Assembly: GCF_020171365.1 (NCBI RefSeq)
Contig: NZ_JAIUZO010000002.1
Span: forward strand, 2,016,001 to 2,080,000
DNA: 64,000 nucleotides
Direction of reading: 5' to 3'
DNA from: Qipengyuania gaetbuli
GTDB lineage: Bacteria > Pseudomonadota > Alphaproteobacteria > Sphingomonadales > Sphingomonadaceae
The position numbers and the translations under genes are program-made. The notes below the pieces were generated by a model that had not been told where the DNA came from, searched no databases, and worked only from the letters and a program-made list of their open reading frames with translations. This document shows positions 46,936 to 53,858 of this stretch, piece after piece. Position 1 is the stretch's first letter. Each line of letters begins with the position of its first letter.

Positions 46936-48008
46936 GCGCGGCGAATTACGCCGGCGTCGACACGCCAGATAGCGGCTTCATCCGCGATGGTGTCGAAGGG
47001 GGCAAGTTCGGTACCCGTCATCCAGACCTGCGCGCCGCTGGCGGACAATTGGTCGAACAGCGCGGCGCGGCGCACCGGGTCGAGATGCGCGGCAACCTCG
47101 TCCAGCAGCAGCACACCTGCGCGCCCCTGCGCTGCAATGGCGGCATGGGCGAGGGTGATGGCGACCAGCATGGCCTTCTGCTCGCCGGTCGAGCTTTGCG
47201 CTGCGGGCACGCGCTTGGCTGCATGGACGACTTCCAGTTCGTCACGGTGCGGGCCCGACAGGGTGCGCTGCGCCGCACGGTCGCGGGCGCGGTTCTCGAA
47301 CAGGGCTTGCGACAGGCTTTCGCTGCTGTCGGCACCGCCCGGCGCATAGGTCAGGGCAGGGCGCGCAAAGGGTTCGGCGGGCATATGCGCGATGCGGGCC
47401 ATGAGTGTATCGACCAGCAGGCGGCGCCCCTGGACAAGCCGCCCGCCGTGCTCGACCATCTGCGCCTCGATCGCATCGAGCCACGCGCCATCGGGCGTGC
47501 GATCGTCCGACAGCAGACGGTTCCGCTCGCGCAAAGCCGCCTCGTAGCGTGCCGCGTGGCTCGCATGGGCGGGATCGAGCGCGAGGGCCATGCGGTCCAT
47601 GAAGCGCCGGCGATCCGCAGCAGGGCCGGTGAACAGGCCGTCCATCGCCGGTGTCAGCCAGGTAAGCGCCAGCCATTCGCCGAGCGCGGTCGCCGTGCTC
47701 TCGGAGCCGTTGATACGCACCTTGCGCCTGCCGGGCGCATCGTTTTCGGTATAGGTGCCGAGCCGGACTGCCTCGCCGTCCTGCATCAGGTCCGCCCCGA
47801 CGCCGAAGCCGGTCATGGCGGAATGCTCCACCATCTCCGCCAGCGCGGCGCGGCGCAGGCCGCGACCCGGGGCGAGGAGCGACAGGGCTTCGAGCACGTT
47901 CGTCTTGCCCGCGCCGTTTTCCCCCATGAGCAGGTTGAAACGCGCGGTATCGCGCAGATCAGAGGCCGTGTGATTGCGGAAATGGGTGAGGGAAATGCGC
48001 TCGAGCAT
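46932..48008 (-). CDS. recF: DNA replication/repair protein RecF
   Basis: A 358-residue SMC-like ATPase of the RecFOR recombination pathway that loads RecA at gaps. Walker A GENGAGKTNVLEAL is near residue 30, the signature STGEQKAMLVAITLAHA and Walker B GVLLLDEVAAHLD are near residues 280-320. The ATG at 48008 starts MLERISLTHFRNH, the family start; the frame stays open 26 codons further but that part has no similarity. It stands alone here, not in a dnaA-dnaN cluster. It diverges from the sigma-54-type operon across about 227 bases. Confidence 0.96.
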   Translation of the reverse strand: MLERISLTHFRNHTASDLRDTARFNLLMGENGAGKTNVLEALSLLAPGRGLRRAALAEMVEHSAMTGFGVGADLMQDGEAVRLGTYTENDAPGRRKVRINGSESTATALGEWLALTWLTPAMDGLFTGPAADRRRFMDRMALALDPAHASHAARYEAALRERNRLLSDDRTPDGAWLDAIEAQMVEHGGRLVQGRRLLVDTLMARIAHMPAEPFARPALTYAPGGADSSESLSQALFENRARDRAAQRTLSGPHRDELEVVHAAKRVPAAQSSTGEQKAMLVAITLAHAAIAAQGRAGVLLLDEVAAHLDPVRRAALFDQLSASGAQVWMTGTELAPFDTIADEAAIWRVDAGVIRRA

Positions 48009-48062
48009 GGGCTGTTCGAGGGTTAGCGTGCGCGCTCCTTCACCGCCAGAAAAATGCCATTT

Positions 48063-48087
48063 CCAACAGTTGGTGAAATTTCCCAAC
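48063..48087. promoter_or_regulatory. Candidate upstream activator site for the sigma-54 promoter
   Basis: CCAAC-A-GTTGG is immediately followed by TGAAATTTC-CCAAC, so GTTGG sits in two inverted repeats. The centre of the GTTGG-n9-CCAAC element is about 109 bases upstream of the predicted start site, where enhancer-binding proteins such as PspF usually bind. The activator gene is not in the window. Confidence 0.4.
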
Positions 48088-48131
48088 CTTTCGGATTGAT
48101 GAACAGCCAGTCAGCTCGCTGTTAAGACGAG

Positions 48132-48151
48132 AATGGCGGATTTCTGCCATT
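48132..48151. repeat. Inverted repeat AATGGC-n8-GCCATT
   Basis: A perfect 6-bp inverted repeat with an 8-base spacer, 9 bases upstream of the sigma-54 -24 element. It could be an operator or an IHF-assisted bend site; as a terminator for anything upstream it has no plus-strand gene to serve. Confidence 0.35.
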
Positions 48152-48160
48152 TTTCGAGTT

Positions 48161-48176
48161 TGGCACGCCCGTTGCA
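48161..48176 (+). promoter_or_regulatory. Sigma-54 (RpoN) promoter, -24/-12 elements
   Basis: TGGCAC-GCCCG-TTGCA matches the sigma-54 consensus TGGCAC-n5-TTGCW exactly, with the invariant GG (48162-48163) and GC (48174-48175) separated by the required 10 bases. The start of transcription is expected near 48187, about 49 bases before the first microprotein gene. The location directly in front of a pspC-containing operon is consistent with the sigma-54 dependence of psp operons in enterobacteria. Confidence 0.8.
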
Positions 48177-48191
48177 ATGCTTGTCATGTCC

Positions 48192-48206
48192 CCCGGATGG
48201 TCCGGG
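48192..48206 (+). promoter_or_regulatory. Hairpin at the predicted mRNA 5' end
   Basis: CCCGGA-TGG-TCCGGG is a perfect 6-bp stem with a 3-base loop, about 5 bases after the predicted sigma-54 start site. A 5'-terminal stem often protects mRNA from decay. It is 15 bases or more away from the ribosome site AAAGGGA at 48221-48227. Confidence 0.4.
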
Positions 48207-48235
48207 AAACGACAGGAATAAAAGGGAATTACACA

Positions 48236-48355
48236 ATGTCCGTCTTCGATTTCGACAGCAGCAAGGCCTTCGCAGCAGTCTTCGCCCTCGGCCTTTCGGC
48301 TCTGAGCATGGCCTTCGCCATCATCCCGGCAACGCCCGCTGGCCTCGTCGCCTGA
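48236..48355 (+). CDS. 39-residue hydrophobic microprotein A
   Basis: A small gene of 39 codons with AAAGGGA about 8 bases before the ATG. The product has a short acidic N terminus (SVFDFDSSK), one long hydrophobic helix (about residues 11-31) and a C terminus PATPAGLVA. It aligns without gaps to the next gene's product with 15 of 39 identical residues, including FAA at 12-14, SA at 21-22 and ATP at 32-34. It could be a membrane microprotein, or the start of the helix plus an AxA-like end could be read as a signal sequence. I recognise no named family. Confidence 0.75.
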   Translation: MSVFDFDSSKAFAAVFALGLSALSMAFAIIPATPAGLVA

Positions 48356-48387
48356 TCAACCCACTTTCAATGCAAGGATCGATAGAA

Positions 48388-48507
48388 ATGTTCGACAGTG
48401 AAAACTTTGGTGGCCGACTTTTCGCCGCTGCCGCATCGCTGATGATTTCGGCGGCATTCTTCGCCACCGCCATCGTCAATGCAACGCCGACCGGAGCCCT
48501 GGCATGA
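48388..48507 (+). CDS. 39-residue hydrophobic microprotein B
   Basis: The second 39-codon gene, 32 bases after microprotein A. It has the same layout (acidic N terminus FDSENFGGR, hydrophobic helix 11-30, C terminus NATPTGALA) and the same length. Its TGA overlaps the ATG of pspC (ATGA), which makes it part of the same transcript and supports translation. An open frame extends upstream of the ATG but covers gene A in another frame and is rejected. The tandem pair looks like an ancient duplication. Confidence 0.78.
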   Translation: MFDSENFGGRLFAAAASLMISAAFFATAIVNATPTGALA

Positions 48508-48722
48508 ACGACCTCAAGTTCCGCGAAGACCAGCCCATCCGCGAAAGCCGTAGCTTCCGCCTGGATCGCCAGAACGGCAAGCTGATGGGTGTGTGCGCCG
48601 GCATCGGCCGCTACTTCGGGATCGACACCACGCTGGTTCGCGTCGGCTTCGTCCTGGGTACGCTGCTCGGCTTCGGCAGCTTCATCCTCGTCTACCTCGG
48701 CATCGCGCTGATTGCAGACTGA
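48504..48722 (+). CDS. pspC: PspC-domain membrane protein
   Basis: A 72-residue PspC-domain protein. After a charged N terminus (FREDQPIRESRSFRLDRQNGK) it has the canonical LMGVCAGIGRYFGIDTTLVRVGFVL and a second hydrophobic stretch GFGSFILVYLGIALIAD. PspC proteins sit in the inner membrane and sense or relay envelope stress with PspA/PspB in enterobacteria. No PspA, PspB or PspF is nearby. It is the third gene of the sigma-54-driven microprotein operon, with its start overlapping the upstream stop. Confidence 0.92.
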   Translation: MNDLKFREDQPIRESRSFRLDRQNGKLMGVCAGIGRYFGIDTTLVRVGFVLGTLLGFGSFILVYLGIALIAD

Positions 48723-48724
48723 CA

Positions 48725-48752
48725 GAGGACGCGGGGGCAATTCCGCGTCCTC
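48725..48752. terminator. Hairpin after pspC
   Basis: GAGGACGCGG and CCGCGTCCTC form a perfect 10-bp stem around an 8-base loop, starting 3 bases after the pspC stop. There is no T tract on the plus strand. It lies between two convergent genes and could serve both. Confidence 0.6.
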
Positions 48753-48774
48753 AACCACCCGCCCGCCGTGCGGG

Positions 48775-49557
48775 TCACATGGCCGAAATGCCGCCGTCCA
48801 GCTTGAGTTCGGCCCCGGTCATGAAACGGCTCTCGTCACTGGCGAGGTAAACGACCGCGTTGGCGATATCGTTCGGCTCGCCAACGAATTTGAGCGGGAT
48901 CTGCCGGGCGAGTTTTTCCAGCAGCACATCCTTGTCCAGCCCCGAATGCCGCGCCGTCCCGTCGAGGATCGGCGTGTCGACGAATGTGGGGTGGATCGAA
49001 TTGCAGCGGATTTGCATCTGCTTCTTGGCGCAGTGGAGCGCGATCGATTTCGACAGCATCCACACCGCGGCCTTGGACGCATTGTAGGCCGGCATGGTGT
49101 CGCTGGCGATCAGGCCCGCAATCGACGAGATGTTGATGATCGACCCCGGCGCGTGTTCGCGCATCAGGGGCAGGGCCTTCTGGCAGCCGTGGAAAATCGA
49201 ATCCACATTGACCGAAAAGCAGCGCTTCCAGTCCTCGAAATCGCAAGTCTCGATATTGCCCGCCACGCCGATCCCGGCATTGTTGACCAGCACATTGAGC
49301 CCGCCGAGTTCGGCATCGGCCGTTTCGACAGCACGTTCCCAATGCTCGGGATTGGTCACGTCGTGCTGGATGCCATAGGCATGGCCGGCACCCATTTCCT
49401 CGACGATTTCGGCAGCGGTGGCTTGCGCCCCGTTGCCGTTGATATCGGTGCACAAGACCCGCGCGCCTTCTTCCGCCAGCCGCTTGGCATGGGCCCGTCC
49501 AAGACCCTGCGCCGCCCCCGTCACCAGGGCCAGCTTGCCCGCACACCGTCCTGCCAT
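48775..49557 (-). CDS. SDR-family oxidoreductase
   Basis: A 260-residue classical short-chain dehydrogenase with TGAAQGLGRAHAKRLAEEG (13-31), LVNNAGIGVAG near 90, the Ser of ISSIAG and YNASKAAV (catalytic Tyr/Lys) and a C-terminal KLDGGISAM. It resembles 3-oxoacyl-ACP/cyclohexanol-type SDRs; the substrate is unknown. A NUDIX hydrolase gene ends 4 bases upstream on the same strand, so they may be co-transcribed. Confidence 0.88.
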   Translation of the reverse strand: MAGRCAGKLALVTGAAQGLGRAHAKRLAEEGARVLCTDINGNGAQATAAEIVEEMGAGHAYGIQHDVTNPEHWERAVETADAELGGLNVLVNNAGIGVAGNIETCDFEDWKRCFSVNVDSIFHGCQKALPLMREHAPGSIINISSIAGLIASDTMPAYNASKAAVWMLSKSIALHCAKKQMQIRCNSIHPTFVDTPILDGTARHSGLDKDVLLEKLARQIPLKFVGEPNDIANAVVYLASDESRFMTGAELKLDGGISAM

Positions 49558-53797: not shown

Positions 53798-53858
53798 TTA
53801 ACCATTCGATCAGCAAAACCCGTGCCAGCAACGCAGGCCTGCGGGATGCAATGGTTAA
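53798..53858. repeat. Inverted TTAACCATT pair upstream of the small membrane protein genes
   Basis: TTAACCATT (53798-53806) and AATGGTTAA (53850-53858) form a perfect 9-base inverted repeat; a 12-base palindrome CGCAGGCCTGCG (53832-53843) lies between. TTAACCAT has been described as a CtrA-type site in Caulobacter, which makes cell-cycle control of the downstream 85- and 72-residue genes possible. Confidence 0.4.

What the first reader, a model, noticed from the sequence alone, without database searches (positions are those of the whole stretch)
48063..48752. Sigma-54-driven operon of two sister 39-residue microproteins plus PspC
An exact sigma-54 -24/-12 promoter (TGGCAC-n5-TTGCA, GG to GC spacing 10) lies in front of two tandem 39-codon genes and pspC, closed by a 10-bp hairpin. 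The two products have equal length, align gaplessly with 15 identities of 39, and share a hydrophobic core and an ATP-x-G C-terminal pattern. The second is coupled to pspC by ATGA. I know PspC and the sigma-54 link of psp genes in enterobacteria, but no named family for the microproteins; a membrane-stress unit with small regulators or toxin-like peptides is the inference.
Basis: partly seen in the sequence, partly recalled or inferred. Interest (0 to 1): 0.78.

Follow-up and report, generated by a model that had tools for sequence, protein, structure and literature searches.

The report
Second PspF operon of membrane microproteins
A marine bacterium appears to switch on, with the control protein that runs its known membrane-damage response, a second small operon that makes two tiny membrane proteins of an undescribed family plus a short sensor-like protein, and its close relatives keep the same arrangement.

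Summary
Both 39-codon frames are conserved in 60 of 60 same-genus genomes; the second always overlaps pspC by ATGA, and the two products are homologous. A sigma-54 promoter is found in 59 of 60 loci; the 60th is cut off by its contig end. I found a candidate activator site: a TGG-N9-CYA dyad 89-91 bases upstream of the -24 element in 58 of 58 loci with enough sequence (full TTGG-N9-CYAA in 47). Its form matches dyads between pspF and pspA, and dyads before E. coli pspA and pspG. Dyad, spacer and promoter together occur twice in the genome: at the psp operon and here. So this is most likely a second PspF operon, in the position E. coli gives to pspG. The microproteins have no convincing match in Pfam, NCBIfam, PHROGs or PDB; convincing relatives were seen only in the window's own taxonomic family. 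Some relatives carry them without pspC, others before pspA. Their action is not shown; I favour accessory Psp membrane proteins over toxins.

The parts
48070..48086 (+). Predicted PspF binding dyad TTGGTGAAATTTCCCAA, starting 91 bases upstream of the T of TGGCAC
   Evidence: TGG-N9-CYA at -89 to -91 in 58 of 58 same-genus loci (3.4% in dinucleotide shuffles), full TTGG-N9-CYAA in 47 of 58; a weight matrix made only from pspF-pspA sites scores this region 21.6, highest of 400 random stretches of the window 12.9; same dyad form at E. coli pspA and pspG
48087..48104 (+). Conserved block CCTTTCGGATTGATGAAC next to the dyad, possibly a second weaker activator site
   Evidence: Footprint in the alignment of 58 upstream regions (the printed end of the alignment was cut); function is a guess
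48161..48176 (+). sigma-54 promoter TGGCAC-N5-TTGCA
   Evidence: conserved in 59 of 60 same-genus loci, the 60th cut off; rpoN present in the genome
48187..48187 (+). Predicted transcription start, 12 bases after the C of the -12 element
   Evidence: Spacing rule for sigma-54 promoters (recalled); not measured
48192..48206 (+). Stem-loop CCCGGA-TGG-TCCGGG near the predicted 5' end of the transcript
   Evidence: Best hairpin of this type in 52 of 59 loci by my reading; mean fold energy -12.1 against -6.6 for shuffled bases; one pair covaries; RNAalifold found no structure
48236..48355 (+). Microprotein gene 1, 39 aa, one predicted membrane helix
   Evidence: In 60 of 60 same-genus genomes; median pairwise dN/dS 0.45
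48388..48507 (+). Microprotein gene 2, 39 aa, homologous to gene 1
   Evidence: In 60 of 60; the gene-2 profile finds gene 1 at E=2.3e-10 and no other convincing copy in the genome; median dN/dS 0.37
48504..48722 (+). Short PspC-domain gene, 72 aa, overlapping gene 2 by ATGA
   Evidence: PF04024 E=6e-17; below the NCBIfam PspC equivalog cut-off, 55.5 of 104 bits; the other PspC-domain gene of the genome lies in the psp operon
48725..48752 (+). Hairpin after pspC, no T run
   Evidence: a hairpin of 6 bp or more follows pspC in 34 of 60 loci

Best explanation
This is a second operon of the PspF regulon. On membrane stress PspF (freed from PspA, by analogy with E. coli) binds the dyad at 48070-48086 and drives sigma-54 polymerase at 48161. 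The transcript makes two sister single-helix inner-membrane microproteins and a short PspC, with translation of the second microprotein coupled to pspC. The microproteins are most likely accessory or effector proteins of the Psp response that pack in the membrane, with each other or with PspC, through conserved small residues. Shown by computation: conservation of the genes, their family, the promoter, the dyad, the gene order, the lineage. Inferred: binding by PspF, induction by stress, membrane insertion, translational coupling, and the role.
For: Dyad plus spacer plus promoter occurs twice in the genome, at the psp operon and here, 0 in the reversed control; 35 matches against 0 control in 16 same-genus genomes, my sum of the rows. 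Dyad at -89 to -91 in 58 of 58 loci. A matrix from pspF-pspA sites puts its best hit at -91 in 56 of 58. E. coli pspA and pspG carry the same dyad form, and PspF is reported to bind the UASs of these two promoters (PMC3709507, passages). At 20 joined sites chosen by hand, the first gene is a 34-61 aa one-helix frame in 16, a PspC-like gene in 2, another gene in 2. In 11 of 40 fetched relatives a family member precedes pspA. K or R stands before the helix in 35 of 44 gene-1 and 49 of 49 gene-2 proteins, and after it in none of the 93. Conservation of gene 2 lies on one helix face (p=0.005).
Against: No expression, binding or phenotype data. PspF is far more widespread (183 of 196 order genomes) than the microprotein profile (82 of 196), so this is an add-on, not a core part. 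The 50-aa peptide heading the psp operon of this very genome is not detectably related. Gene 1 shows no significant conserved face (p=0.21), and small residues show none in either (p=0.54, 0.33). pspC is not always there. The 20 sites were chosen from a cut-off list and 10 of them are psp operons. The matrix was trained on sites picked by a dyad pattern, and its control stretches are mostly coding. Outside the own family the joined pattern also matches, 38 against 14 control in 83 genomes (my sum), partly one recurring stretch that looks like background. Of 40 fetched relatives, 7 showed no sigma-54 site and 14 no dyad at -89 to -92 (my count).
Confidence: 0.62

Rival explanations
1. The small frames act mainly as leader cistrons: their translation brings ribosomes and the mRNA to the membrane and couples translation of pspC, and the peptides themselves matter little.
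For: ATGA overlap of gene 2 with pspC in 60 of 60 same-genus genomes; a small one-helix frame comes first in 16 of 20 hand-chosen joined-promoter operons; fast sequence change between genera.
Against: dN/dS below 1 and invariant residues; 5 of 40 relatives have the microproteins with no pspC detected after them.
Confidence: 0.15
2. Toxin-like peptides: the microproteins lower the membrane potential or halt growth under stress, as small hydrophobic type I toxins do.
For: Size and single hydrophobic helix; one of 34 members has a weak holin match in NCBIfam (E=0.003) and one in PHROGs (E=0.0096). E. coli YohP, 27 aa, is reported to reduce membrane potential and to protect under stress (PMC12719787, abstract).
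Against: Weak matches to single members may be compositional; no Rfam match in 48000-48800, which does not exclude an undescribed antitoxin RNA; both copies kept in 60 of 60 genomes and apparently co-driven with a protective response.
Confidence: 0.12
3. Another sigma-54 activator, not PspF, drives the operon.
For: The genome has nine matches to the sigma-54 activator domain, five of them strong (E below 1e-40).
Against: Only the pspF-pspA region shares the dyad-promoter architecture in this genome.
Confidence: 0.08

Closest known systems
PspG operon of enterobacteria (second PspF target)
   Same: Separate sigma-54 promoter with a PspF-type dyad, away from the psp operon, making a small membrane protein (membrane nature of PspG recalled)
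   Different: Two 39-aa one-helix peptides plus a short PspC instead of PspG (80 codons in E. coli K-12)
pspF-pspA operon of the same genome
   Same: PspF-type dyads, sigma-54 promoter, small membrane-type peptide first, a PspC-domain protein
   Different: Two dyads, pspA and a pspB-like frame present (pspB by eye only), PspC 125 aa with a C-terminal part that the 72-aa protein lacks, and a 50-aa head peptide not detectably related
Stress-induced small membrane proteins such as YohP (PMC12719787, abstract)
   Same: Under 50 aa, one helix, presumed stress induction
   Different: No sequence comparison made; apparent PspF control; tandem sisters
PspA-free pspC gene neighbourhoods (PMC11237479, PMC9239133; passages)
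   Same: PspC outside the psp operon, near membrane-protein genes
   Different: The main text of neither paper holds a word beginning with Sphingomon; no such microproteins in the passages I saw

Membership tests
PspF regulon | sigma-54 promoter | tested here: met
   48161-48176, conserved in 59 of 60 loci, the 60th cut off
PspF regulon | PspF-type site upstream, shared with the pspA promoter | tested here: met
   By sequence only:
PspF regulon | pspF and rpoN in the genome | tested here: met
PspF regulon | Expression lost without PspF | not testable with these tools
   needs a deletion strain
PspC domain proteins (PF04024) | Score above the Pfam cut-off | tested here: met
   61.6 against 25 bits
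PspC equivalog (TIGR02978) | Score above the NCBIfam cut-off | tested here: not met
   55.5 against 104 bits; match ends at profile position 58 of 121
PspG | Sequence similarity to PspG | not tested
   No direct alignment made; 34 family members show no Pfam match and no PspG match in NCBIfam at E up to 0.01
Type I toxin peptides | Antisense or cis RNA antitoxin | tested here: inconclusive
   No Rfam match at E up to 1 in 48000-48800; undescribed RNAs not covered
Type I toxin peptides | Growth arrest on induction | not testable with these tools
   needs an experiment

The most novel reading that the evidence does not exclude
The microproteins, not PspC, are the main output of this arm of the Psp response: a lineage-wide class of PspF-driven single-helix effectors, encoded first in their operons in one to three tandem copies, that change membrane packing or proton leak directly. 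The Psp response would then have an effector class unknown from E. coli.
Probability: 0.35. Interest if true: 0.8.

Novelty: new variant of a known kind. Interest (0 to 1): 0.62.

Why it matters
The Psp response is the standard model of bacterial inner-membrane stress, and how its small membrane proteins act is still open. A conserved family of minimal one-helix proteins, apparently under PspF control in a group of environmental bacteria, gives a simple system to ask what a stress membrane microprotein does. It also extends the predicted PspF regulon outside enterobacteria with a testable binding site, and gives annotation pipelines a family for which I found no model.

Tried and rejected
Direct relation between the microproteins and the 50-aa peptide heading the psp operon of this genome: I first noted it as a likely paralogue (notebook); profile searches gave no significant match, so the claim is dropped. 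Nine peptides heading pspA operons in other genera do match the family (hhalign 96.5%), but they had been found with the family profile in the first place. The -24/-12 motif alone as proof: 4 genome hits against 2 control, rejected as sole evidence. RNAalifold on the 5' region found no structure; a sequence-anchored count on 39 of 59 loci (28 distinct) then showed covariation at one pair (p=0.002 against shuffles, relatedness not corrected), so the hairpin is kept as likely, not proven. Small-residue helical moment not significant (p=0.54 and 0.33). Pfam, NCBIfam, PHROGs, PDB and Rfam gave no family beyond two weak holin matches. Class search: 3 of 240 genomes match at E up to 0.001, two of the own family and one with stop codons inside. 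Order search: two of 82 matching genomes lie outside the own family, one match with stops inside, one weak (E=0.003). Structure prediction never ran. Literature: ten searches of an open-licence library listed no description of this operon or family; for most listed papers I saw only the listing. I saw passages of PMC11186258, PMC11237479, PMC9239133, PMC3844500, PMC3709507, PMC9241875 and PMC5443232 and the outline and abstract of PMC12719787. PMC9241875 says all Qipengyuania strains it studied carry PSP genes; a table of PMC5443232 lists PspC in Novosphingobium; neither passage mentions microproteins.

Full report
What is there. The window (C2:2016001-2080000 of a 2.69 Mb genome) belongs to Qipengyuania or a near relative: the nearest named record by the short PspC is Q. 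gaetbuli at 99% (which may leave out the window's own record). Divergent from a recF-like gene (PF02463), a gap of about 227 bases holds a TTGG-N9-CYAA dyad (48070-48086), a conserved second block (48087-48104), a sigma-54 promoter (48161-48176) and a short stem-loop (48192-48206). Then follow two 39-codon genes and a 72-codon PspC-domain gene.

Are the small genes real? In 60 of 60 same-genus genomes gene 2 is present and ends in the ATGA overlap with pspC. Gene 1 was found by pattern in 56 of 60 and by inspection in the other 4. Median pairwise dN/dS is 0.45, 0.37 and 0.29 for gene 1, gene 2 and pspC; third codon positions vary most. The pairs share ancestry and synonymous sites are partly saturated, so these values are rough. 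Gene 1 and gene 2 are homologous: the gene-2 profile finds gene 1 at E=2.3e-10, hhalign 99%.

Who switches it on? The promoter motif alone is weak (4 against 2 control). The TGG-N9-CYA dyad is in 58 of 58 loci with 140 upstream bases, at -89 to -91 from the T of TGGCA; dinucleotide shuffles give 3.4%. The full TTGG-N9-CYAA form is in 47 of 58, shuffles 0.7%. The dyad is also in 29 of 30 fetched pspF-pspA regions of the genus (either strand). In E. coli K-12 I found it at pspA (TTAGTGTAATTCGCTAA, one site) and pspG (TAGTCAAATTCACCA), the two promoters whose UASs PspF is reported to bind, two at pspA and one at pspG (PMC3709507, passages). A matrix made from the pspF-pspA sites puts its best hit at -91 in 56 of 58 loci of the microprotein operon, mean score 20.8, lowest 14.4; 400 random stretches of the window reach at most 12.9. 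Dyad, spacer and promoter together occur twice in this genome, at the two operons, control 0.

How far does it reach? The broad profile matches 82 of 196 genomes of the order at E up to 0.01. Two of these lie outside the own family and are poor. By my count of the rows that leaves 80 of 113 genomes of the own family, a few of them weak or doubtful. In a draw of 240 genomes of the class 3 match: two of the own family and one with stops inside. PspF itself, at E up to 1e-85, is in 183 of 196 order genomes, and the 13 without it lie outside the own family. So the microproteins look like a lineage-specific addition to a widespread regulon. Among 80 named loci found by pspC, a loose sigma-54 site is upstream in 57, two small frames by pattern in 33 and at least one in 39. 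Further frames, in Novosphingobium, Croceicoccus, Sphingorhabdus and Croceibacterium records, were seen on inspection of 29 of the others. Some of the rest look like canonical psp operons or distant bacteria by eye; this was not tested.

What travels with what? Of 40 further relatives fetched, 33 have a loose sigma-54 site before the microprotein and 26 a dyad at -89 to -92 (my count). Three contexts occur: one to three microproteins plus a short PspC; microproteins with no PspC detected in 3 kb (5 of 40); and a microprotein before pspA (11 of 40, 5 of them beside pspF). Two loci (L240, L242) gave no credible microprotein. Starting instead from the promoter, I chose 20 joined sites by hand from the cut-off list: ten of the 106-107 base kind, mostly where the profile had found nothing nearby, and ten of the 86-87 base kind. 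The first frame with a ribosome-site-like lead is a 34-61 aa one-helix peptide in 16, a PspC-like gene in 2 (one of them by eye) and another gene in 2. The ten of the second kind are psp operons, whose head peptides belong to a separate, not detectably related set. In the 16 same-genus genomes the joined pattern has 35 matches against 0 control; in the 83 genomes outside the own family it has 38 against 14, some of them one recurring stretch that looks like background (my sums).

What might the proteins do? Hydropathy gives one helix window of 19 residues starting near residue 12. K or R precedes it in 35 of 44 and 49 of 49 distinct proteins and follows it in none of the 93, so N-in by the positive-inside rule (established knowledge). 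Small residues recur four apart (positions 13, 17, 21 in gene 1). Gene 2 shows a conserved face (p=0.005), gene 1 does not (p=0.21), and the small residues alone show none. This is compatible with packing against another helix, perhaps PspC, but no interaction was tested. The short PspC lacks the C-terminal part of the 125-aa PspC of the psp operon.

Verdict. A conserved operon, very likely the second of the PspF regulon in this genome, with a small-protein family for which I found no model or description. The regulatory reading is strong (about 0.9 in my judgement), the functional reading moderate (about 0.5).

Noticed in passing
53812-53827 (-): One more strict sigma-54-like site (TGGCACGGGTTTTGCT) lies 36 bases before two tandem small membrane-type frames of 85 and 72 aa (53775-53303, minus strand); it is not among the two dyad-plus-promoter hits.
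   Followed up: partly
48133-48150: A palindrome-like stretch (ATGGCGGATTTCTGCCAT) upstream of the -24 element recurs in relatives, in some as GGCGGAATTCCGCC.
   Followed up: no
48192-48206: Stem-loop near the predicted 5' end of the transcript, kept in most relatives with a few changed pairs; it may protect the mRNA.
   Followed up: partly
L004:6983-7135: The psp operon of this genome starts with a 50-aa one-helix frame; such a frame stands there in 30 of 30 fetched genus loci.
   Followed up: partly
L297 and L303: In one relative (G179), two joined dyad-promoter sites precede 86- and 91-aa frames with a signal-like start instead of a microprotein.
   Followed up: no
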